Source of the DNA: Sycon ciliatum
Lineage: Eukaryota; Porifera; Calcarea; Leucosolenida; Sycettidae
Direction of reading: 5' to 3'
DNA length: 64,000 bases
Assembly (NCBI RefSeq): GCF_964019385.1
Contig: NC_088655.1
Location: forward strand, 9,859,630-9,923,629
Positions 1 through 62,835 of the stretch are shown here, piece after piece. A program made the translations under genes and the position numbers. Every line of letters starts with the position of its first letter. Position 1 is the stretch's first letter. The notes beneath the pieces are model-generated. The model had not been told where the DNA came from and made no database searches. It saw only the letters and a program-made list of their open reading frames with translations.

Positions 1-8043
<8,043 letters not shown>

Positions 8044-18500: not shown

Positions 18501-21108
18501 TCAGAAAGTGCAACAACTTTTCACAAAACTTACAGAGCATCGGAATGCTATTCTAACCTTGTACAGTCAACTTCGCTTATAACGACTGCGGATGTAACGA
18601 CAATTCGTGAATAACGACAGAATTTCCATGCCCAGAGCAAAGTCCCATCAAACTGTAACACGTATAGGGTATCAGGACGCTTCGCGAATAAGGACACTTT
18701 TCGGATGCCCCGCCGAGTGTCGTTGTACGCAAAGTTGACTGTACACTCATTTTGCATACCAGCTCGGAACGATGCCACAGATGCCCCCCCCCCCCCCCCC
18801 CCCCCCCGTAATAAAACTCACCATTTCGCCGTGGTGGTAGCGTAGGTAGCGCTGCAGGCTTACTCCGGCCAGCCAACCTATGTTGACGAGTACCTTGGAC
18901 TTTGTCTCGTTGCAGTAGAACGGCACAACCACCTGTGACAGAAAGCAAGGCACCAGCAGCACTCAGCAAGATTGAGGTGAAATTTGAAACGTTTCGCTGA
19001 GTGCTCCAACTACGAAAAGTAGCGGGCAATGCGTAATGCAGCAGCACTAGAGCAGCCTACCGAGAATGCTCAACAAGACGAAAGCCGCGGAGCATAATAC
19101 CCAATGCTGTAATGTAGAGCATGTGTACTACGAGACAGAGAAGTTCAACATTACTACATTATCATCACAGACGGCAGAGCACTTGTCCGTATTAGTACTA
19201 TAAGTCGCAAATTGCAAACATAACGCAGGGGCGCCACAAGGCAGTGGGGACTGGTACGACCGGAGGTTGCCCCCCCCCCCCCCCCCGGGAAAAAATCGGA
19301 TTTTTCGGCCAACAGCAATAGGGCACGTTTTAGCGCTCTTTTTTGGGTTTTTTAATAGATGAATTGGGCGGACCATAATGGATGAAAAGTGGTACGACCA
19401 TGCGACCATGACCGTGTGTGACGCTCCAGGTACTGCACATACTAGAAAAGCAGAAATTTTCGGTGATGTAATATTTTCGGCATTCTCCAAAACCGGCGGT
19501 TCGATGGAGGGAAACTTTCGGTAAACCCACTTTCCAGGTAAGTGAAGTACTACATTATAGTACCGAAATTTTCAGTAAAAATTTCGGCACTGAAGTTACT
19601 GAAAATAAAACACCACCGAAAATTTCTGACTTTACAGTATGAGGCATAATTTACTTCCTCGTTACCGGTATATTTACATGTGTTGCAGTACCTGGTAGCC
19701 GGACACGTGTGTGAACGGGTTGACGACCTGGCTCATGAAGCCGCTCTGATCGGCCGCAAGGAGAGTCTTGAACAAGACGGGACCGACGAGTACAGTCTCG
19801 CCCCGGACAAAGCGCCCAGTGAACCGTGCCAGTTCCTTGCCGGTCAGTAACTCCAAGCTGAAGTGGAGGCAAACGATGGCATAAGAACATGTTGCAATAG
19901 AAGGATCCACAAGCGGGATTCGAACCCAGCACCCCTGTCTTTCCGGGACAGTGCCCTACCGATTAGGCTACTAATACCCCCCCCCCCCCCCATTGGGGAT
20001 CACACACACCCGTGGGTCCTTCTTGCTACAAACAGACAAACCCGTAACTTAGTACTATAATTGTAGTAACCATGAACGGCCACCGTGTTCTGGTCAGCAA
20101 AGTGTGGCGGAAGGTTGCCTACAAGGGAGGGTCTGCAAATGTGAAAAGAGCACATTTCTACTTTTTTAAATGTCAGGGTTCCGGGCGGATGCCGGAACGA
20201 TCGATTTGTGGCCGAATTTTCGCTGTGTGAACAAACAAAAAAACACAATAATAAGAATGGGGGTGTGCTATCAGAGTGCCCCCCCCCCCCCCCCCCCTAC
20301 TCCCCTTGCCTACAAGAACCCTGTATGTTTACGGAATTCAAAACTCACCTCTTTACGTCGTCCCCCTACCACTCTAATGTAAGCCATGCATACGGTCCCA
20401 AATGATTGCGTGTCTCGGATCGGGGGGGGGTATAATACTCTTCATCAATAGCGATAATCGGACCCAAACAATGTTGTTACTGCCAACGCTTCTATGCCTT
20501 CCGTGAAGTATGGGCCATTTGTGCGCGTGCTCGCCCAGGAGCATTTGCACAACTTCCAAATTCAGGGCGCCACTTTGAGTCGGACTTGACCTAGCATGGC
20601 TACCGATCTACAAACAGATGAAGGGAACATGCCACGAACAGGAGTGAGAACATTGCAACTGCTTTTCGGTGAAAGCGTTCTCAGTGCTTGTACGTGCAGT
20701 TGCCCATGCCAGGATAGTCCGGGCGATGGGTGTTTAGAATATGGGTACGGGTAAGCCTCACCTTGCTGGCATGGGTACTTCGTTCTGGTTCGGCACATTC
20801 GTCTTCGACATATCACTCCACAAGTCCGCCAATATCGGCCCCGACAACACACTGGCAAGCACAACGACTATCGCCGCGCCGACCATCTTGAGCCACAGGT
20901 GGCGCCACTTTGTGGCAAGCTCCGGCGGCAGATCCGAAAGTGGCCAGGACGAGGAAAAGCGACGGAAGACGGCATGGCTAGCGCCAGACGTGGACGCGGA
21001 GCTGCCAGGGTACGAGGTCTGACATCGCGGCGAGTCCGCCCGAGTGCACCGTTGCCGTGCTAACGCGGATACGGATCGAATCGCTAGTGCCGTGCCAGGG
21101 ATGTGCAT
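11605..21108 (-). CDS. SURF1-like mitochondrial membrane protein (tentative), 6 exons, complete
   Basis: Exons in gene order: 21108-20762, 19857-19692, 18932-18822, 17577-17424, 15408-15246, 11770-11605. All are GT-AG with matching phases, 368 residues from the chosen ATG. That start (MHIPGTALAIR..) gives an Arg/Ser-rich, acid-free N-terminus like a mitochondrial presequence; in-frame starts further upstream to about 21231 cannot be excluded. A hydrophobic helix follows around residues 78-98. Then comes a block resembling SURF1/Shy1, the cytochrome c oxidase assembly factor: VPMPA, a ..FTGRF..ETVLVGP segment, SGYQVVVPF and VLVNIGWLAG. The C-terminal half has a second hydrophobic helix (exon 6) and a Lys/Arg-rich end. 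The canonical GGQT..N.HL motif of SURF1 is not seen, so this is either a diverged SURF1 or a different two-helix protein. Confidence 0.6.
11862..12032. repeat. (CA)n microsatellite with CACTCACTCACA interruptions
   Basis: Long CA array. In the transcript it is (UG)n, about 90 bases upstream of the last 3' splice site of the SURF1-like gene. Confidence 0.95.
12256..12840. mobile_element. 585-bp PIF/Harbinger-like MITE, GGCCACAC family copy 1
   Basis: Ends GGCCACACCAAGTTATTTC and the imperfect inverse of the same, with subterminal CTATGTTTCGCGTCACCCGC. TTA precedes the left end; CTA follows the right end (one mismatch). Related to 13550-13963 and 41394-41785. Confidence 0.75.
12949..13254. mobile_element. 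306-bp inverted-repeat element
   Basis: Arms AGGTGGCTGGGGCGGTACAA and its inverse, extending about 60 bp inward through GTCAAAAT/TGCATTTT complementarity. No coding sequence; flanked by AT-rich sequence. Confidence 0.75.
13550..13963. mobile_element. 414-bp PIF/Harbinger-like MITE, GGCCACAC family copy 2
   Basis: Ends GGCCACGCCGTTTTTTTC and inverse, perfect TTA on both sides. TTA/TWA duplications and GG-starting inverted ends are typical of PIF/Harbinger elements. Confidence 0.85.
15037..15222. mobile_element. 186-bp MITE, CAGTTGCGCTCACNGAAAT family copy 1
   Basis: Ends CAGTTGCGCTCACGGAAATC and GATTTCACTGAGCGCAATTG. The interior GCTGGCGCCCTGGA..CAGTT and CAGCCGCATTC are shared with 42537-42721 in gene 4. 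Confidence 0.8.
15490..15570. repeat. (GA)n(CA)n microsatellite
   Basis: AG tract running into an AC tract, upstream of the SURF1-like exon 5 acceptor (15409). Confidence 0.9.
16363..16963. repeat. 20-bp minisatellite derived from the MITE terminal motif
   Basis: About 30 copies of TAAGCCGCCGCACTGGAGTG, with 17-bp variants lacking one CCG-type triplet and some TCC variants. Left units carry GAGTGTAA and right units (from about 16757) carry GAGTATAA. The unit is the subterminal sequence of the host MITE (CCGGAGTATAAGCCGCAC) in tandem. All three minus frames are open through it, but only as repeat translation. Confidence 0.95.
17008..17273. mobile_element. 266-bp TA-flanked MITE, GAGAGGTTC family copy 1
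   Basis: Ends GAGAGGTTCTGCAAAACGAA and perfect inverse, TA on both sides. Nested inside the minisatellite-bearing MITE. Confidence 0.85.
17599..18142. mobile_element. 544-bp element with CCGTATTTTCG ends
   Basis: Ends CCGTATTTTCGGACATTAGC and the imperfect inverse of CCGTATTTTCGCCAATA; GCGCC motifs recur just inside. Lies in SURF1-like intron 3. The ends resemble those of the 43914-44296 element. Confidence 0.6.
18564..18741. mobile_element. 178-bp TA-flanked MITE, CAGTCAACTTCGCTTATAAC family copy 1
   Basis: Ends CAGTCAACTTCGCTTATAAC and imperfect inverse, TA on both sides. It lies in intron 3, its end 80 bp from the exon 3 donor. Same family as 31230-31417. Confidence 0.85.
18990..19112 (-). 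repeat. Retrozyme-related repeat fragment without ribozyme core
   Basis: The minus strand reads TACAGCATTGGGTATTATGC and on to GCATTGCCCGCTACTTTT, closely matching the non-ribozyme part of the repeat at 26942-27272. It breaks off where the hammerhead strand would begin. It lies in intron 2 of the SURF1-like gene, sense to that gene. Confidence 0.7.
19905..19975 (-). repeat. tRNA-like pseudogene or SINE head
   Basis: The minus strand has an A box (AGCCTAATCGGTAGGGCAC), a CTGTC/GACAG stem with a 7-base loop (CCGGAAA) and a B box (GGTTCGAATCC). The loop lacks U33, and the anticodon would be GGA with only a short variable region, so a functional tRNA is unlikely. A C run (19976-19990) adjoins it; the SURF1-like exon 2 acceptor is 48 bp away. 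Confidence 0.6.
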
Positions 21109-26680: not shown

Positions 26681-27062
26681 TTCACATACCCAGCTCGAAA
26701 AGAATAATGAAAGACAATGGAGACCATTAGCAAACCGCCACGCGTACAGTCGAACGATTGGAAAGCTCCGATTTCCAATCGTCAAAGCATGCACAGCACG
26801 AAGCCGTACGCTGAACCATTTAGGGACGTGATGCGGGTGATGCGTGATGCAACCGGAATCGTGATCACCCGTTGGGGCTGCTCGGGTTTTGCCGTGTGTG
26901 TTAGGTCGCGGTGGCGACGCACTAGTGAACATTTGAATATGAATCACGCAATGCCCGCTACTTTTTGTAGTTTGAGCACTCTGGCGCTAGAACGACGAGC
27001 TATCTTAATGTCTGTGGTGCCTCCTTTGCACCATGGCTGGTAGCTCGGCCTATTTAGCTCGT

Positions 27063-27112
27063 AGCTGTACTGATGAGGCCGTTATGGCCGAAACAGCTTG
27101 CTGTCTACAGCA
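27063..27112 (+). ncRNA. Type I hammerhead ribozyme 1 (retrozyme-like repeat)
   Basis: CTGATGA at 27070-27076; stem II GGCC-GTTAT-GGCC; GAAA at 27090-27093; stem III (A)CAGC-TT-GCTG(T); cleavage position C27105 preceded by U. Stem I pairs GCTGTA with TACAGC, six perfect pairs. All conserved core bases (CUGANGA, GAAA, UH) are present. Confidence 0.9.
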
Positions 27113-27211
27113 TTGGGTATTACGCTCCTCGGCTTTGGCCTTGTTGAGCACTCTCAGTAGTCTGCTCTAGTGCTGCTGCATCACGCAATGCCCGCTACTT
27201 TTTTAGCTCGT

Positions 27212-27260
27212 AGCTGTACTGATGAGGCCTTTATGGCCGAAACAGCTTGCTGTCTACTGC
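27212..27260 (+). ncRNA. Type I hammerhead ribozyme 2 (retrozyme-like repeat)
   Basis: Same core as ribozyme 1: CTGATGA at 27219-27225, stem II GGCC-TTTAT-GGCC, GAAA, CAGC-TT-GCTG, cleavage after C27254. Stem I keeps GTA/TAC plus one more pair, with a U-U mismatch, so it is slightly weaker. Confidence 0.85.
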
Positions 27261-27662
27261 ATTGGGAATACGAATATAATAAAATTAATGTAAGCTATTT
27301 ACCTGTTCAATGTCACAACATTGATTTTAGTTGTCCGCGAGTGATCACCTTCCTCGAGTCGCTGCTTCACAGCACTACAAAGTAGTTGCCGTTTTCACAC
27401 CAGAATTATTCCTCTGTCGACGTAGACAGGCGAGAATGCCAGGGGATCGCTTAGAGTGCAGCTCGAGTTGCCAGCCAAACCTCGCTCTGTCTTCGTTGCA
27501 GTTTGGTCACCATTCAAGACCCTTATTTCTCCTTGGCTCATCACAGAGCCTTGACCACTCTCACAAAACTTCTGCTACGAGACTCGTAGACTTAGGCTAG
27601 GGTCTACTAATAGTTAGACTATTATGGTCTTCGCTTCGCAGATATCATCAACAATAATAATA

Positions 27663-28131
27663 ATTACCCATATAAAAACCGCTCTGTGAGCGGTTCTGAA
27701 AAACCTCTACTGGTGCAGCCCCGTCGTAAAAGTAAGAAATTAGAACTGGCGCATTGTCCTCCCAAATGTGAACTGATCCACCTAAATCGCGATTGACGGG
27801 ACCCGAACGCACCAGTAGCACGAGGTTCCTACCTGTGGATGCAGCTGGGGACGCTGGTCCATAGCCAAAGCCAAAGCGGCAAAGGTGGGCTTCGGGCCGG
27901 GGTAGATCTAAGTGTTGTATGGTAACTTGATCAGCGCCGACGCCGGCTGTGATCCTGTGCCCTCCCGACCTCGTGCTACTGGTGCGTTCGGGTCCCGTCA
28001 ATCGCGATTTAGGTGGATCAGTTCACATTTGGGAGGACAATGCGCCAGTTCTAATTTCTTACTTTTACGACGGGGCTGCACCAGTAGAGGTTTTTCAGAA
28101 CCGCTCACAGAGCGGTTTTTATATGGGTAAT
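27663..28131. mobile_element. Foldback element with 164-bp near-perfect arms
   Basis: Arms 27663-27826 and 27968-28131 are inverted copies with almost no differences, around a 141-bp spacer. Each arm ends in ATTACCCATATAAAAACCGC and carries its own small palindrome ACCGCTCTGTGAGCGGT. No conserved protein. Near-identity of the arms suggests youth or gene conversion. Confidence 0.9.
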
Positions 28132-28926
28132 TTCAGTTCTTTTTCTGTTCCCTCCCCCACCCTAGCCCAGCTCCGAAGATAAACATGGTGAGCACACGCG
28201 CGATGCACTGTACGTAGCCATGCAACTGCAGTAGCACACTGATACATTCCAGCCCTCCCCACCTCGCTACCCCGCACACAGACACCTTGTGACAAACACG
28301 CACATGCACATGGCACACACACACATGGGCACGCACACACATACATACACACACACACACGACCCAAACAGGAAATTCTTGATGAACATTGTATAATGCC
28401 ATGCAAAGCAGTGGCCACCATACTTCAGGAAGTCAGTTGTGAAACAAAAATAATTCAACTACAATGTGTAGGTAAGCTAGCAGCCAAAGCACAACATTGC
28501 AAACCGTGATGATATTTGCCTAAGGATTGCAGTTTGCAGACCACACCATGGAAGCAGTGAATACAGAATTATTGTAATGTCATACAAAGACGAGCAAAGA
28601 AGTGGCCACCATACACCAGAAACTTGCAGAAAGTCACATATCCAACAGATAGAGAAGTGAACAGCATCTGGTACAGCCCACACAAAACCAAGCTGACCTG
28701 ATAATCGTCCGAAGATCGTAAGTGGCAGATCCTTTTCAACGATAGCATGCAGGTGTACGTTACACGCATGGACAAAATCTGACCGTGTCATCGGCATACA
28801 TTGTCATCACATGCATACCCCACAGGTTACACACATGCACAGTAGAAGCACAATAAAAGCAATGGAAAAATATGAAGGGGTTGCTGAAGCATCTTCACAC
28901 TTCAATTTCAGACTTCGATGTGGTCG

Positions 28927-34593: not shown

Positions 34594-34640
34594 GCCTCTC
34601 GACAGCTGTTTCGCTCCCTGTCGGAGCTCATCAGTAGAGG
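34594..34640 (-). ncRNA. Type I hammerhead ribozyme 3 (minus strand)
   Basis: On the minus strand: CTGATGA (34634-34628), stem II GCTCC-GACAG-GGAGC, GAAA (34612-34609), a loop-less palindromic stem III (A)CAG-CTG(T), and cleavage after C34601. Stem I pairs CCTCT with AGAGG, with an A-G mismatch next to the cleavage site. A stem III of this kind is known from minimal hammerheads that act as dimers. The repeat it belongs to is not delimited. Confidence 0.7.
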
Positions 34641-55446: not shown

Positions 55447-56550
55447 TCACCAGTACTCTGCCTTGTACGCATCTGTAACTGCGTTGCACAGATATGTCCA
55501 TTCACGGCGATCAAGTGCTCGCTGAGCCATCAGCTGCAAGTCCCTTGGAGTCCTCAGACGGCAGCCGACTCGCTCCGCGTCTTGATTCAGCAGGACCGGT
55601 AGCGTGATCCGCGGCCGCCCACGGTATCCCGGCACGGAGCAGCCAAAGAATCCACTCATGGCCTCCCTAGCCGGTGTGTGCTCATCTGATCGCAGGATGT
55701 GGCCAAACAACCGCCATCTTGCATTCACCAGAATGTTGCCAAGTGGAGCAGCACTGCAGCGCTCGTAAACCAAATCGTTCGACAGTCGGTTGGGCCACCT
55801 GATACCCAAGATATGCCGAAGTTGCCGCCGATGATACGATTCCAGCGCTTCAATTGTCTGTCGAGTGATGCCCCATGTGGAGCAGTTGTAAAGCAAGACA
55901 GGTAACACGAAGCAGTTATACAGCCGGACGCGCACCTCCAGACTCACTTGGTCTCTTCTCTTCCATAACTGGCAGAGGGACTTAAACGCTATCGCCGCAA
56001 GCTGCTTTCTGCGGGTGACATCCTCTGCATCACCAAGGAGAGAGCCGAGTTTCTTGACCATACGCCATGGCTCATCAGCACGATCGGCCTCTCGCTGGAT
56101 GGCTGTGAATTCTGTCTTGGTCTGGTTGACGGTAAGGGACCATGTACCCAAGATGGTGGCAACTTGTGGCTCTAACATCCGAAGCCAATCACTAGAGATA
56201 CTGATGAAGTCCACATCATCGGCGTACTCCACATCGTACGGAAGATGCCGGGCCACAGGTGCAGCCATTCGCTGTCGCACATCCTGCAGGGCAGCTTCCA
56301 GGTAGATCACGAATAGAATTGGCGACAAGGAGTCGCCTTGCGGGGTACCAATGTTAGTGGAGAAAGAGCTTGATGTTTCCGTGCCCAGTCTGACTGCCAA
56401 ATTCGTATCTGAGATCAGGTAACGGATCAAGCGTACCTCGTCTTCTTCCAAGAATCGCTGAACCACGTCCATCAACTGTCCTCGCCTGATCGTGTCAAAG
56501 GCACGTGACATGTCGATGCCCAGTATGCTGAATGACCAGTTTTTCTGGCT
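55447..56550 (-). CDS. LINE reverse transcriptase, C-terminal half
   Basis: Non-LTR RT motifs in order: DMSRAFDTI (first catalytic Asp), GTPQGDSLSPILF, EYADDVDF (YADD active site), LTVNQTKTEF, then the post-palm region (RKQLAAIAFKSL, VLPVLLYNCSTWGI, RRLFGHIL-like WRLFGHILRSDE, RGRPRITLP). Intact frame to a stop at 55447. It lacks a start of its own because it is the downstream half of the ORF whose upstream half is at 56586-58484 on the other strand. Confidence 0.85.
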   Translation of the reverse strand, partial: SQKNWSFSILGIDMSRAFDTIRRGQLMDVVQRFLEEDEVRLIRYLISDTNLAVRLGTETSSSFSTNIGTPQGDSLSPILFVIYLEAALQDVRQRMAAPVARHLPYDVEYADDVDFISISSDWLRMLEPQVATILGTWSLTVNQTKTEFTAIQREADRADEPWRMVKKLGSLLGDAEDVTRRKQLAAIAFKSLCQLWKRRDQVSLEVRVRLYNCFVLPVLLYNCSTWGITRQTIEALESYHRRQLRHILGIRWPNRLSNDLVYERCSAAPLGNILVNARWRLFGHILRSDEHTPAREAMSGFFGCSVPGYRGRPRITLPVLLNQDAERVGCRLRTPRDLQLMAQRALDRREWTYLCNAVTDAYKAEYW

Positions 56551-56585
56551 GAGGAGGGTGACTCCTTCTCTCCCTCTCTTGGGAT

Positions 56586-58484
56586 ATGTCTCTATCGAAC
56601 CTAGTGGATGGGGGCTTCTTTAGACAGGAAGGAAGCCAATTTAGTTTAGCGACGTTCAATGTACGTGGTCTATCGTCGAAAGTCAAACGTGAAGCGCTCT
56701 GTCGTGATTTGGCCAAGTACAAAATTGATGTTTGTGCCGTGCAGGAAACTAAAATTTGTGAAACGAGGCAAGAGTATTGTGGTGGCTATGTTCTTTACAC
56801 ACTGTCGCCAACCTGTCGTCATTATGGTCTGGCATTTGCAGTAAGAAGCAGCTTGGAGCCGAGAGTCGAGAGAGTTTGGAGCGTTTCTGACCGAGTCGCT
56901 GGAATTTCGTTACAATTGGGAAAAAAATCGACATTGAGTATCCTGAATGTGTATGCCCCGACGTCAGCTCGCTGCAGAGACAACAACTTTGAATTGGATG
57001 AATTCTACGATACCTTGACCAGAGCTATACATGACGTGGACTCGAGTTCCCTCTTCTTTGTTGTTGGAGACTTCAACGCGAAAGCTGGAACGAAGCAGCA
57101 GGACGAATCATGTATTGGCAGCCATGGGCGTGGAATCAGAAACGTCAGCGGAGAGACGCTAGTGCAGTTCTGTGAAATTAACAGATTATTCTTATCAAAC
57201 ACAGCGTTCTGCCACTCTGCAAGGCACAGGACCACATGGACAGGACAGCGACTTGACAGAGCCAGTGGCAAGATTGTCAACATTTACAACCAAATTGATT
57301 ATATTCTGTGCCGTCAATCGCAAAAGAGACTATTCACCAACGCCAGAAGTTACAATGGAACGGAAGTCACATCAGATCATAGGATTGTGGTGGCTCGCAC
57401 GCTTTTACCTCGAGTATTCGGCATATGGGGTCGGGCGGCGCGGAGCAGCCAGAAGAAGGTGGATCGCCTAGCAGTGCATCGTTTACCCGGGGATCCACAA
57501 CTGCAGAATCAGCTAACATTTGCCATCTCAGACAGAATTCAGAGGGTGTCAGAAGATCAGCCCAACACCGGATGGGATGCAATAGCTGCAGAGATCTTCC
57601 ACGCGGGCAAAGAGATTGTGGGTGTGACAGCCAAGACCAGTCATCGTCACCATGACCCAGAGACCGAGAGACTTTCCTGCATGCAGAGAGATGTCCGACT
57701 CCGTATTCAGGGCAGTGATGACCCAATCGAGCGAGAAATGTTGAGGACTGACCGGAATCGAATCCTGCATGATATCAGGAACAGATCCATCACAAACAGA
57801 GAAAATGAACTAATATCGCGAGCAGAGGAGATAGAGAGGCTCAAGGATGGAGCCCAGATGTTCCAAGCTGTACACTTGCTCCGGCGAAAGCCATCGCAGA
57901 AAGTCGTCGTTAAGGACAGCCAGGGCAAGATCATATGTAATGATAAGCAAGCAAGCTTGGAGATTAAGAATCATTTCTCATCGCAGCTCAGTGACTCTGC
58001 AATTCAGCAATTTGGATCCTTCACTGGGGAACCTCGACCGCTGCAGCATCCCGTTTCAACGGAGGAAGTGAAAACAGCACTAGCAAGACTCAACAACGGT
58101 AGAGCTGCAGGACCCGACAACATCCCGGGTGAGCTGTTGAAGTACTCAGCCGATGCCACTGCTCCCGTCATAAGCCGATGCATCAACAGCCTATTTCAGC
58201 AACACCGGGTAGAGCCATTCATCGGTCATGGCACACTAATACCTCTCCAGAAGCCCGGAAAGCCGGTGGGTGCTTTAACCAGTCTGCGACCGATCATCCT
58301 CCTGACAACTCTACGCAAAGTCATGTCGCTGGTAGTCCTCAAGCGCATCTCGCCAGCCGTAAACGATTTCCTATCACTGAACCAAAGTGGTTTTCGTGCA
58401 GGAAGGTCAACAGCTGATGTGGTCTGGTGCCATCGGTGGTTAGCAGCTACGACCCAGCGGTACCACTGGTCATTCAGCATACTG
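56586..58484 (+). CDS. LINE endonuclease and RT N-terminal half
   Basis: APE-type endonuclease: FNVRGL (about residue 24), VQET, NVYAPT, VVGDFNAKAG, YNQIDYIL and TSDHRIV. RT fingers follow: LNNGRAAGPDNIPGELLKY, LIPLQKPGKP.., LRPIILLTTLRKVMS, LNQSGFRAGRSTADVV. The element-derived frame ends at WSFSIL (about 58484); the last 20-odd codons of the open frame to 58550 are flanking DNA. Separated from its catalytic palm by the inversion, so it cannot work. Confidence 0.85.
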
Positions 58485-58541
58485 GTCCTCGCCTTGACAT
58501 GCTGTCAAAATCGAAAAACTGTAGAGTGTAGTACTACTCCC

Positions 58542-58627
58542 TGGTCATGATGGCTGAATCTTGCCCGAGCCTGCAGCCCAAGGGCCGTAGGCCCGAGGGC
58601 TGCAGGCATGATGCAGCCATCATGACC
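58542..58627. repeat. 86-bp hairpin with conserved GGGCCGTAGGCCC loop
   Basis: GGTCATGATGGCTG pairs with CAGCCATCATGACC; inside, GCCTGCAGCCC pairs with GGGCTGCAGGC around AAGGGCCGTAGGCCCGA. Same apical design as 36325-36403 with compensating C/G changes in the loop stem. Confidence 0.85.
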
Positions 58628-59104: not shown

Positions 59105-59418
59105 TGCCAAAACTTCCCGTGTACTGTATTATAACAAAATTTGTATACTATAGTCCCAACACGGCACCTTTCACATTTGCATGCTTTCATGATCACAATC
59201 CAATTACCCCTACCCCTGCGCCTCTTTGGGCTCCCAGCGGCTTTGATGGGTCCACTTGTATCATAGTTAGTTTTGGCCAAGTGAGTAGGGCCAACTCACT
59301 TTGTATTTTCTTTTCTCCTTTCACTCTGATGATTCTTTAACAAGATGAAACCGGTCAGTAAGAAAGAAAAATGACCTTTTGTGATAAACGCTTGTGTCGG
59401 GGGTTCTCTATTTACAAT
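59105..59418 (+). repeat. Penelope-like element, left terminal repeat (pLTR)
   Basis: Starts TGCCAAAACTTCCCGTG and ends TCTATTTACAAT. Differs from the right copy mainly at AGTAGGGCCAACTCACT (59284-59300) and single bases. Contains a hammerhead. Confidence 0.85.
59314..59368 (+). ncRNA. Hammerhead ribozyme in left pLTR
   Basis: CTGATGA at 59326-59332; stem II TCTT-TAAC-AAGA; GAAA at 59347-59350; minimal loop-less stem III (A)CC-GG(T); cleavage after C59356. Stem I pairs CTTTC-ACT with AGT-AA-GAAAG. All conserved core residues are present; the short stem III suggests activity as a dimer. Confidence 0.8.
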
Positions 59419-59466
59419 ATTTAAGTTCCGTTATAGACCTCCCTCAAGCTTTCCAAACCCTTTGGT

Positions 59467-60324
59467 ATGGACTCCGCTAAGGCCAAACTCGGCATGGGCC
59501 GACAGAAACCCGCTACAGACGGCTCTCCTCGCCCACCGAAACGCACTAGATTTCCTGCTGATGACGACGACGTGATCTTCGATGATGATGTCAAAGATGA
59601 TGATGTCAAAGATGTTGACTCCCCTCCATCAACGCTCCTGCTTGGCGCCTCACCGCTACCGGACGCTGAACTCGAGAGGTATGTGACGTGGTGCATAAAC
59701 CGCATTGCTACAAGTGAGAAAATTGTCATCGAACAGCAAGGAAAATTGGACAAACTGCAGATTCAGTCTACCAGCCAAGTCTTTGAGCAATACATTCTGA
59801 ACAAGTTTTCCAAAATGTCTGATAAAGCTAGGCTTCACGAGTGTACCGAATACGTTGACACCGGCATAGCTAGCTGTAAACAGAAAATCGATAGAGCCAA
59901 TACAATTACAAACGAAGCAAAGAGAGACATGGATGATGTTGTGACAACACTATTGGATGACAAGCAAGGTGCAGACTTTGCAAGCATGATCCTATACCGT
60001 TTCGACTACCTCCAAAGCTTGAAATGTGCTACCAACATAGTAAAGAACTTGCGTCTCTCTAAGATTGCTGAGCGGAAAACACCAAAACAACAACCAGTAA
60101 AACCCATGGACGTCACAGCACTCCCACCGACTACAGAAGAAATTGGCACCTTAATTAAAAAGGAAGTGGCTCGCCAAGTAAAAGGGAATGCTGTCCAACA
60201 GAAGAAAACCATACCTAATCAACCAAAGCCCACTAAACCAAAGTCCACTAAGACAAAAAACTTTGTGGTGAAGGCCTCGTCTGGCAGAAGGAAAGTCAGC
60301 CCCCCAAAGGGCAGAAGTCGATAA
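59467..60324 (+). CDS. Penelope-like element ORF1 protein
   Basis: 285 residues, intact. An acidic stretch near residues 35-50 (DDDDVIFDDDVKDDDVKD), a helical middle part and a very Lys/Pro-rich C-terminus (from about 230). No recognised domain; a nucleic-acid-binding role is inferred from the basic tail only. Its stop overlaps the start of the RT frame. Confidence 0.7.
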   Translation: MDSAKAKLGMGRQKPATDGSPRPPKRTRFPADDDDVIFDDDVKDDDVKDVDSPPSTLLLGASPLPDAELERYVTWCINRIATSEKIVIEQQGKLDKLQIQSTSQVFEQYILNKFSKMSDKARLHECTEYVDTGIASCKQKIDRANTITNEAKRDMDDVVTTLLDDKQGADFASMILYRFDYLQSLKCATNIVKNLRLSKIAERKTPKQQPVKPMDVTALPPTTEEIGTLIKKEVARQVKGNAVQQKKTIPNQPKPTKPKSTKTKNFVVKASSGRRKVSPPKGRSR

Positions 60325-61050
60325 GAGATTTAAGACTAAGATTTGTTTGGAACTTAAAATTAAGTACCCATTCTACTTATGTTCTTAACTCTGGTTTTCA
60401 TAACTTTTCTCGTTGTACCTTCACTGAAATTGAAAAACAAATTCTAGGCTATGGTTCTAGTTTTCGTCCCAGTACGTACCTTCCCTCTTCTGTTTCACTA
60501 TTGAATGATATTAACTCACTAACACGTAGAGCTAGATGGAATGACTTATTTGCTAGAATGGGACCTCCAGTGTCCAATAGCTCGTTCATCCGCAAATTTC
60601 ACCTTCCTTCAGAGAAAGTACCACCCACTGCTCTACCAGATGTCGAATATTCGCTTCTTGATTTCAGTAATAGGCTTACCTCCAGTGTTGCTGCTGCAAA
60701 AATTACAAGCAAACGTTCTCATAATTTGACACTAAGTGAGTTTTCAGCATACAACTGTCTTAAACACAGAACAGATATCATTATTTGCAATGCAGATAAG
60801 AATCTTGGCACTGTTGTTTTAAATAGAGACGACTATCTAGCAGAAGGTTTTCGTCAACTAGCTGACGAGAAACATTATGCTGTTATGTCTGCTGACAACC
60901 AATCTTTGCATGATACATTGCACTCAAAATTGTCAAATATTTGCAAAAAACATTCTGCCTTTCTTTCCAAATCCGACACGAGTGCACTATTTAGTTGTTT
61001 CCCTTTCAAACCAGCTAAATTCTATATGCTTCCGAAAATACATAAAAACT
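60321..61050 (+). CDS. Penelope-like RT, N-terminal part (frame broken at 61050)
   Basis: Open from ATA at 60321, a different frame from ORF1, overlapping its end by 4 bp. No ATG early in the frame, so translation may need frameshifting from ORF1 or re-initiation. Motifs: NFSRCTFTEIEKQILGYGSS, NADKNLGTVVLNRDDY (RT fingers) and AKFYMLPKIHKN. A TAG interrupts directly after PKIHKN. Confidence 0.75.
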
Positions 61051-62119
61051 AGTGGCAGGCTTAGTCCCAGGCAGACCTATTGTCTCCTGTATTGGATATT
61101 GCACCTCGCCAGCATCTAGATTTATTGATTTTCATCTCAAGACTCTTATTGGTAAACATACAGACACTGTTCTTCAAGATACGTATAGTTTATCTTCTAA
61201 ACTTGAAAGCTCAACTTTTCCAGCTAACAGTAAACTTGTTACTGCTGACGTTGTTAGTCTGTACACCAACATGAGCTGGGCCGATACTACTGCAGCCCTT
61301 GATCAGTTCCTTAGTACACTTGATCATCCTTTAAGGACCCTTTTAGTCGAACTAATTGCTTTTGTTCTGGAAAACAATTTTTTCAATTTTGAAAATGTTT
61401 TATACCACCAACAACACGGCATGGCAATGGGGACACCTATGGCAGTAAACGTCGCAAATGTCTTTCTTTACATACACGAAAAGAAGTCTATAGCACTTTT
61501 CCAAAAGTCTATCTACCTGTTTGATAGATTCATTGATGATTTGTTTATGATTATCGATGAGTGCATTTGCATTGACACACTTAAGCAATCTCTCTACTCT
61601 ACACTTCCTGACATACATCTCACTTGGTCAGACGTTAGTGACGAGTGCATTTTCCTAGACCTTGAAATTTTCAAAGTACTTTCAGAGAATAATTGCCACA
61701 TGTTATATCGGACCCACCAAAAACCCAGAAATGCATATCTCTATATTCCTTTCAAGTCTGATCACCCAAAGTCAAACTTCCGCTCTTTTATTATAGCTGA
61801 ACTTGTTCGTTATAATAGGACAAATTCATTACTATGTGATGTGCTTGTTATTCGTGAGCGTTTTTGGCACAGACTTCGTCTCAGAGGCTATCCACCCCGT
61901 TTCTTGGCTCGCATCTTCGCAAGTATCGAGCCGTCACCTTCTGTTATACCTAAACAGAATAGTAAGAAACATGCTGATAGAGATAGACGTAAGATTACTT
62001 TTGTAACTGACTATCATCCTCACTTTGCAAATAATCGCCTAAAAACGATATTAGAAGAATCTTTCTCAACTTCTAACGTAGAGATCTTCTTTCGTAGAAC
62101 AAAACAACTCTCATATTGA
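61051..62119 (+). CDS. Penelope-like RT, palm and C-terminal part
   Basis: Continues in another frame with LVPGRPIVSCIGYCTSPASR, TADVVSLYTNM (first catalytic Asp), HGMAMGTPMAVNVANV, FDRFIDDLFMI (catalytic DD), DECIFLDLEIF, then VTDYHPHFANNRLKTIL and FRRTKQLSY. The tail before the stop resembles the thumb and linker of Penelope RTs, but there is no GIY-YIG module. Confidence 0.8.
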
Positions 62120-62232
62120 AACGTTCTCGTCTTTTAAGCTTTTAGAGACTATAGATCTAGCATTTCTCCACATTCTTCCTCCATACTTTATTTAATCACA
62201 AAACTTTTGCAGGCTTACATGCCTGCATTTTG

Positions 62233-62258
62233 GCAGTGTCCAAATTTGGACACTGCCA
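62233..62258. repeat. 26-bp perfect palindrome at the right pLTR boundary
   Basis: GGCAGTGTCCAAA and its exact inverse. Its last bases (TGCC) are the first bases of the right pLTR. The left pLTR lacks it. Confidence 0.9.
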
Positions 62259-62569
62259 AAACTTCCCGTGTACTGTATTATAACAAAATTTGTATACTAT
62301 AGTCCCAACACGGCACCTTTCACATTTGCATGCTTTCATGATCAGAATCCAATTACCCCTACCCCTGCGCCTCTTTGGGCTCCCAGCGGCTTTGATGGGT
62401 CCACTTGTATCATAGTTAGTTTTGGCCAAGTGAGTTGGCCCTACTATTAGCATGTATTTTCTTTTCTCCTTTCACTCTGATGATTCTTTAACAAGATGAA
62501 ACCGGTCAGTAAGAAAGAAAAATGACCTTTTGTGATAAACGCTTGTGTCGGGGGTTCTCTATTTACAAT
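62255..62569 (+). repeat. Penelope-like element, right terminal repeat (pLTR)
   Basis: Direct repeat of 59105-59418. Confidence 0.85.
62465..62519 (+). ncRNA. Hammerhead ribozyme in right pLTR
   Basis: Same sequence as the left copy: CTGATGA at 62477-62483, GAAA at 62498-62501, cleavage after C62507. Cleavage at both sites would release a 3151-base unit RNA. Confidence 0.8.
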
Positions 62570-62835
62570 TATTGTAGCGAACCATTCGAATTTTTTACAG
62601 TAGGTTATGATGCACGTTATTTCCGACGTGACGCGCTATTAATTTTCACGTCAAATTTGGCGTAAAACTCCACGACGTGAGCTAGCTGCAGCATGCATGC
62701 AGGTCACCATGGTTACTCGCGTTGTTTTTCGACGCACGAGCCAACACTACCAAATACCGGTACAGCTGTATGTAACGCGAGCTGAACTTTCGCATCATTT
62801 TAAAAATAACGAGTTACGTATGTGCATCTTAACGA

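What the first reader, a model, noticed from the sequence alone, without database searches (positions are those of the whole stretch)
26942..27272. Retrozyme-like tandem dimer with two textbook type I hammerheads, 149 bp apart
The first hammerhead folds perfectly (6-bp stem I, GGCC stem II, CAGC/GCTG stem III) and the second keeps the whole core. Tandem hammerhead monomers with no protein match animal retrozymes, which are expressed as small circular RNAs. The 88-bp extra segment in the first unit makes the two monomers unequal, which is unusual.
Basis: partly seen in the sequence, partly recalled or inferred. Interest (0 to 1): 0.85.

Follow-up and report, generated by a model that had tools for sequence, protein, structure and literature searches.

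The report
Young hammerhead retrozyme family, one copy
This is one slightly damaged copy of a tiny mobile DNA element whose RNA carries a self-cutting ribozyme, and the many other copies in the same genome suggest where its RNA, probably a circle, starts to be copied back into DNA.

Summary
In detail: two type I hammerhead motifs in direct repeat, predicted cleavage after 27105 and 27254. The retrozyme reading is supported, but the anatomy given is wrong. The genome holds 992 matches to a 25-base unit tag, 0 in control, in dispersed pieces and 2-6-unit arrays with a 237-bp period. The "88-bp extra segment" belongs to that unit; unit 2 has lost it. The 149-nt junction was seen in 1 of 158 fetched loci, the window's own.

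Mapped on the 237-nt unit, 53 of 60 sampled copies end 8-18 nt past the cleavage site (48 of 60 at 13-17), while 5' ends scatter. Flanks are A+T-rich or microsatellite, often with target duplications. Units within an array share variants, as if read from one template. I infer target-primed reverse transcription starting inside a joined RNA, most simply a circle, as in the internal initiation shown for a Penelope-like element (PMC11167929). A Penelope-like element with hammerhead-like cores lies in the same window. A related 226-bp family with compensatory stem changes ends at about the same place. Cleavage, circle and enzyme are inferred.

The parts
26941..27271 (+). whole retrozyme copy, about 1.6 turns of the unit; ends uncertain by a few bases
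   Evidence: repeat boundaries and mapping on the 237-nt unit; flanking GAATAT 26935-26940 / 27272-27277 is only a weak target duplication (chance 0.028)
26944..27180 (+). one contiguous 237-bp unit (unit 1)
   Evidence: used as the query: 143 matches from 40 scored of 1283 candidates
27064..27111 (+). hammerhead 1, type I, predicted cleavage after 27105
27213..27260 (+). hammerhead 2, type I, one U.U mismatch in stem I, predicted cleavage after 27254
26967..27052 (+). segment of the normal unit, with a predicted hairpin, that unit 2 lacks
   Evidence: present in the units
27196..27208 (+). deletion junction of unit 2
   Evidence: found in 1 of 158 loci, L069, which is the window's own place
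27267..27271 (+). 3' end of the copy, 13-17 nt past the cleavage site of hammerhead 2; inferred start of reverse transcription
   Evidence: 48 of 60 sampled copies end at 13-17
18999..19111 (-). second, 113-nt copy in the window, 90% identical (102/113); begins at the base after the cleavage site and is cut short inside the segment missing from unit 2
59105..62573 (+). Penelope-like element, possible helper (not part of the retrozyme)
   Evidence: terminal repeats 98-100% over aligned blocks, 225 homologues of one frame, tail at 64 places; clade named from recalled features
59326..59356 (+). minimal hammerhead-like core in the 5' terminal repeat of that element; an identical one starts at 62477
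   Evidence: stems read by eye, not tested

Best explanation
A non-autonomous animal-type retrozyme. Inferred cycle: a copy is transcribed within a longer RNA; type I hammerheads cut it into 237-nt units; units are closed into circles by a host ligase (as published for other animals); a reverse transcriptase from an autonomous element, most likely Penelope-like, cuts A+T-rich DNA and starts cDNA synthesis at one internal site about 15 nt past the ribozyme junction, running round the circle from a small part of one turn to several turns. The product is a dispersed copy with a fixed 3' end, a variable 5' end and often a short target duplication. The window's copy covers about 1.6 turns and lost a hairpin-bearing stretch from its second unit, during copying or later. 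Shown: motifs, copy number, 237-bp period, fixed 3' end, duplications, array homogeneity. Inferred: cleavage, circle, enzyme.
For: 992 tag matches against 0 and 457 against 7 for another tag; 237-bp period in arrays of 2-6 units; 3' end at 8-18 in 53 of 60 copies, 5' ends at 48 different positions; flanking duplications of 8 bp or more in 26 of 61 against 4.0% in mismatched pairs; A+T-rich or microsatellite flanks; within-array homogeneity beyond all 1000 shuffles; a related family with changes on both sides of stem I and stem II pairs and the same end; a Penelope-like element in the window; published internal initiation and A+T-rich targets of such an element (PMC11167929).
Against: No RNA data. 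The isolated hammerheads and the predicted circle prefer other pairings. The 149-nt unit of the window as a circle folds no better than shuffles (z -0.74), although the 237-nt consensus does (z -2.61). G+C of the consensus is 53.2%, above the under-50% reported for animal retrozymes. No sequence is shared with the Penelope-like element, no Pfam endonuclease or reverse transcriptase model matched its frames, and in PMC11167929 hammerhead cleavage was not needed for insertion. 7 of 60 copies end elsewhere.
Confidence: 0.6

Rival explanations
1. Same element, but the template is an uncut multimeric read-through transcript, not a circle; reverse transcription still starts internally about 15 nt past the junction.
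For: A start past the cleavage site only requires that the two sides of the junction are joined. PMC11167929 reports that uncut RNA is the dominant template of a Penelope-like element in vitro.
Against: Arrays carry array-wide variants (29 columns against 3.3 by shuffle), easiest from one circle. Of 138 loci, 7 pairs share only the 5' flank: L024/L115 start at different unit positions (51 and 137) in a shared host repeat, L121/L122 have no 3' flank to compare, L049 with L079 and L089 share 27 nt; the trio L025/L078/L098 I did not resolve.
Confidence: 0.25
2. Same element, but moved by a LINE enzyme rather than a Penelope-like one.
For: 5' truncation and target duplications are LINE-like; PMC4918200 compares 15-bp duplications of Nematostella hammerhead repeats with LINEs (passages seen). 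LINE frames lie at 55447-58550.
Against: The start is inside the RNA rather than at its 3' tail; hammerheads, tandem copies and A+T-rich targets are shared with Penelope-like elements.
Confidence: 0.3
3. Satellite DNA amplified at the DNA level, with hammerheads as relics.
For: Tandem arrays exist; L030 and L031 share both flanks but have two and three units, so arrays do expand or shrink.
Against: Dispersed copies with one fixed end, scattered other ends and target duplications; in sample 2, 19 of 37 copies are shorter than 130 nt.
Confidence: 0.04

Closest known systems
Metazoan non-LTR retrozymes (PMC7229834, parts 1-4 of 6 of the text read)
   Same: type I hammerheads in small non-coding tandem repeats (150-450 bp), many dispersed copies, duplications longer than 4 bp, coexistence with Penelope-like elements
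   Different: sequence family not named in what I read; consensus G+C 53.2% against under 50%; expression and circles not tested here; a fixed 3' end relative to the cleavage site is not described in the parts read
Penelope-like element of Anolis, PAc (PMC11167929, parts 1-2 of 4 read)
   Same: internal start of reverse transcription downstream of a hammerhead, A+T-rich targets, tandem or partial-tandem copies
   Different: PAc is autonomous with its own reverse transcriptase and endonuclease; its hammerhead cut is not needed for insertion in vitro; our element is non-coding
Plant LTR retrozymes (PMC4918200, passages)
   Same: non-coding element with hammerheads in direct repeats
   Different: plants: type III hammerheads in about 350-bp terminal repeats (size from PMC7761336, passages), 4-bp duplications; here type I, a 237-bp unit and longer duplications

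Membership tests
metazoan non-LTR retrozyme | type I hammerhead with conserved core and three stems | tested here: met
metazoan non-LTR retrozyme | small tandem repeats, 150-450 bp per unit, in many copies | tested here: met
   237 bp
metazoan non-LTR retrozyme | target duplications longer than 4 bp, when present | tested here: met
   26 of 61 copies with 8 bp or more against 4.0% in mismatched pairs; some are microsatellite runs
metazoan non-LTR retrozyme | non-coding | tested here: inconclusive
   no frame of 110 aa or more spans the element; two overlap it in part and were not tested further
metazoan non-LTR retrozyme | low G+C (given in the papers as typical, which I take as descriptive, not defining) | tested here: not met
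   53.2% in the 237-nt consensus
metazoan non-LTR retrozyme | highly self-paired monomer | tested here: inconclusive
   consensus circle 68% paired, z -2.61; the window's 149-nt unit z -0.74
metazoan non-LTR retrozyme | expression as linear and circular RNA; self-cleavage | not testable with these tools
   needs RNA
metazoan non-LTR retrozyme | loop 1-loop 2 contacts; absence of primer site and polypurine tract | not tested
   no call
plant LTR retrozyme | type III hammerhead | tested here: not met
   stem I is the open stem, so type I; the Rfam type III hits are far below gathering
Penelope-like element (59105-62573, the proposed helper) | terminal repeats with minimal hammerhead, reverse transcriptase of that clade, partial tandem copies | tested here: inconclusive
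   repeats, homologues and tandem tails found; cores read by eye; clade from recalled motifs, no above-cut-off Pfam hit

The most novel reading that the evidence does not exclude
Animal retrozyme arrays are written by target-primed rolling-circle reverse transcription of a ribozyme-made RNA circle from one fixed internal start, a conserved motif just past the ligation junction (16 of 18 bases shared by two families that are 59% identical overall) that a Penelope-like enzyme recognises in trans. The genomic 3' end is then a readable record of circle use, and the few copies that begin exactly at the cleavage site record cut RNA.
Probability: 0.5. Interest if true: 0.75.

Novelty: new member of a known kind. 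Interest (0 to 1): 0.55.

Why it matters
Which enzyme moves animal retrozymes, and whether the RNA circle is the template, are presented as hypotheses in the papers I read (PMC7229834, PMC7761336). A family with hundreds of little-diverged copies, a fixed 3' end and arrays that look like repeats of one template makes both questions testable from genomes alone and gives an exact prediction for an insertion assay. A second family ending at about the same relative place suggests that the start site is a functional signal.

Tried and rejected
Rejected: 149 nt as the family's unit. Rejected for L058: a second 3' end at positions 138-140; L058 is one copy split by a 607-bp insert with 14-bp inverted ends and a TTAA duplication. 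The other three copies of sample 1 ending there (L004, L026, L061) may have the same cause, from their junctions, but I did not trace their far halves. Not upheld: an excess of whole-turn copies; 8 of 61 five-prime ends lie at 8-18 (nominal P 0.007), but I judged the excess too weak and post hoc to claim. Suggestive only: 3 of 97 copies (L013, L059, L106) begin exactly at the cleavage site (P 0.008), and so does the window's minus-strand copy; only L013 has a duplication that fixes the boundary, L059 is ambiguous. Dropped: a start-site hairpin seen in the 149-nt fold but not in the 237-nt fold. No exact pattern match in viral or prokaryote collections. Scripts replaced: the hammerhead regex was faulty (one search replaces it), and the fuzzy junction search was too loose (one search replaces it).

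Full report
Observation. The sequence, the repeat map and a strict type I scan confirm two hammerhead motifs 149 bp apart with predicted cleavage after 27105 and 27254; the scan reports HHR1 only (HHR2 has a stem I mismatch) and nothing in 60 Markov sequences. A loose pattern is less telling: 18 overlapping matches, 2 of 100 shuffles reach that. Rfam has no hit at gathering score and sub-threshold type III hits. On isolated motifs ViennaRNA prefers a swapped pairing of stems I and III, so activity is not assured by folding.

Second copy in the window. A self-search found a copy at 19111-18999 on the minus strand, 102 of 113 bases identical. It starts at the base after the cleavage site and contains the beginning of the 'extra' segment, which first suggested that unit 2 is the altered one.

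Genome. The window lies in a 538-Mb assembly. Of the 100 places that one search lists, 35 lie in 11 arrays, so loci are fewer than tags. A DNA search scored 40 of 1283 candidates and returned 143 matches at 90-100% identity. Among 98 fetched loci, 20 arrays with 2-6 full units were found, with steps mostly of 234-238 bp. The 149-nt junction occurs in 1 of 158 loci, the window's own. The host was not identified; that it is an animal is inferred from its elements.

Ends. I mapped copies on the 237-nt unit with position 1 just after the cleavage site. Sample 1: 68 loci (8, 60), chosen by the tag at positions 76-95, plus the two window copies: 77 alignment rows, 17 dropped (9 duplicated loci; 4 fragments or rows beside N; 3 rows of the window's own copies; half of the split L058), 60 left. 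L039 and L057, both kept, also share both flanks, so at most 59 are independent. In 53 of 60 the 3' end lies at 8-18, in 48 at 13-17; 5' ends take 48 values. The other 7 end at 58, 120, 138, 140, 140, 221 and 231. Sample 2: 40 of the 100 places listed, leaving out places fetched before and obvious arrays; 42 rows, 5 dropped, 37 left. It was chosen by the 3' tag and so informs only on 5' ends: 32 values; 19 copies with a 3' end at 8-18 are shorter than 130 nt.

Targets. On 61 elements (before merging L058), 26 have an exact flanking duplication of 8 bp or more and 19 of 10 bp or more; flanks of mismatched copies give 4.0% and 1.7%. Several are microsatellite runs; less repetitive cases include L009, L014, L017, L036, L052 and L065. 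In 83 copies (both samples, window included) the first 20 nt of the 3' flank are 72.5% A+T against 51.2% for the window; 33 of 83 hold a simple repeat, against 1.2% of random window places and 3.3% of 612 pieces from locus ends. For the window's own dimer the duplication is weak (6 bp, chance 0.028), and the minus-strand copy has none.

Arrays. In 19 arrays with 54 units (dropping an inverted unit of L074, a distant unit of L094, and L030), mean distance within arrays is 0.0116 against 0.0238 in shuffles (lowest of 1000: 0.0174); 29 columns are fixed for a non-consensus base through a whole array against 3.3 on average and 13 at most. Within is below between in 17 of 19; L031 and the more diverged L002 are the exceptions. 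This fits repeated reading of one template; unequal exchange is an alternative, and L030/L031 suggest that it happens.

Second family. In 11 of the 98 loci then held (L062 and L083 overlap) a related unit of 226 bp (228 in a variant) occurs, in L064 and L078 tail to tail with the first family at (TA)n. Overall identity is 59%. Stem II is GGCC/GGCC, GUCC/GGAC or GUUC/GAAC, stem I GCUGUA/UACAGC or CUGCG/CGCAG: changes on both sides. Nine clear ends (L002, L049, L052, L054, L062 twice, L064, L078, L079) lie 11-14 nt past cleavage; in L097 one unit runs into first-family sequence 5 nt past cleavage instead. Around the start site 16 of 18 bases agree between families. Its copy number was not obtained.

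Penelope-like element. 59105-62573 has terminal repeats 98-100% identical in two blocks; one frame has 225 homologues; each repeat holds a minimal hammerhead-like core. Its tail has 64 places against 0, many in 343-bp steps; in 20 fetched tails, 12 continue with AT. No sequence shared with the retrozyme was found, and no Pfam reverse transcriptase or endonuclease model matched its three frames. Its role as helper is inference.

Mechanism. A start past the cleavage site means that the template had both sides of the junction joined: a circle or uncut RNA. Array homogeneity and the lack of clear transduction (one trio unresolved) favour the circle. PMC7229834 (parts 1-4 of 6) proposes circle templates and Penelope-like helpers; PMC7761336 (passages) proposes the same; PMC4918200 (passages) favours circles as templates for retrozymes and reports 15-bp duplications in Nematostella; PMC8490949 (passages) reports a possible duplication at a Schistosoma hammerhead repeat; PMC11167929 (parts 1-2 of 4) shows internal initiation and also that ribozyme cleavage was not needed. 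I saw no description of a fixed 3' end relative to the cleavage site in these texts or in the listings; most subscription journals are not held.

Verdict. A new, little-diverged retrozyme family, one copy of which in the window carries a private deletion. Ordinary as a kind; informative as a population of copies.

Noticed in passing
window 34600-34640, minus strand: A lone hammerhead-like motif (CCUCUA/GAGAGG stem I with an A.G mismatch, stem II GCUC/GAGC, stem III ACAGCUGU), single copy in the window.
   Followed up: partly
window 55447-58550: Endonuclease and reverse transcriptase frames of a LINE on opposite strands with a 35-bp inverted repeat at 56506-56540/58465-58499, as if part of it was inverted.
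   Followed up: no
window 27662-27826 and 27968-28132: Perfect 165-bp inverted repeat with a 141-bp spacer, about 400 bp downstream of the retrozyme.
   Followed up: no
L058 1055-1661: 607-bp insert with 14-bp inverted ends CCCTTTACTGTCCG and TTAA duplication inside a retrozyme copy.
   Followed up: yes
L030 and L062, minus strands: Further hammerhead-like motifs with other stems (GCUCAA/UUGAGC with GGGG/CCCC; GAUUGC/GCAAUC with GUCC/GGAC), possibly other families.
   Followed up: no
L068 643-1870 and L003 1282-2080: Pairs of copies in opposite orientation: head to head in L068, tail to tail in L003.
   Followed up: no
L097 near position 1280: A family-2 hammerhead joined directly to family-1 sequence (CGCAG then TTTGAGCACTCTGG), a possible chimera.
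   Followed up: no
window 19911-19972 and 6704-6778, minus strand: Two tRNA-like hits just above the gathering score, perhaps tRNA-derived repeats.
   Followed up: no
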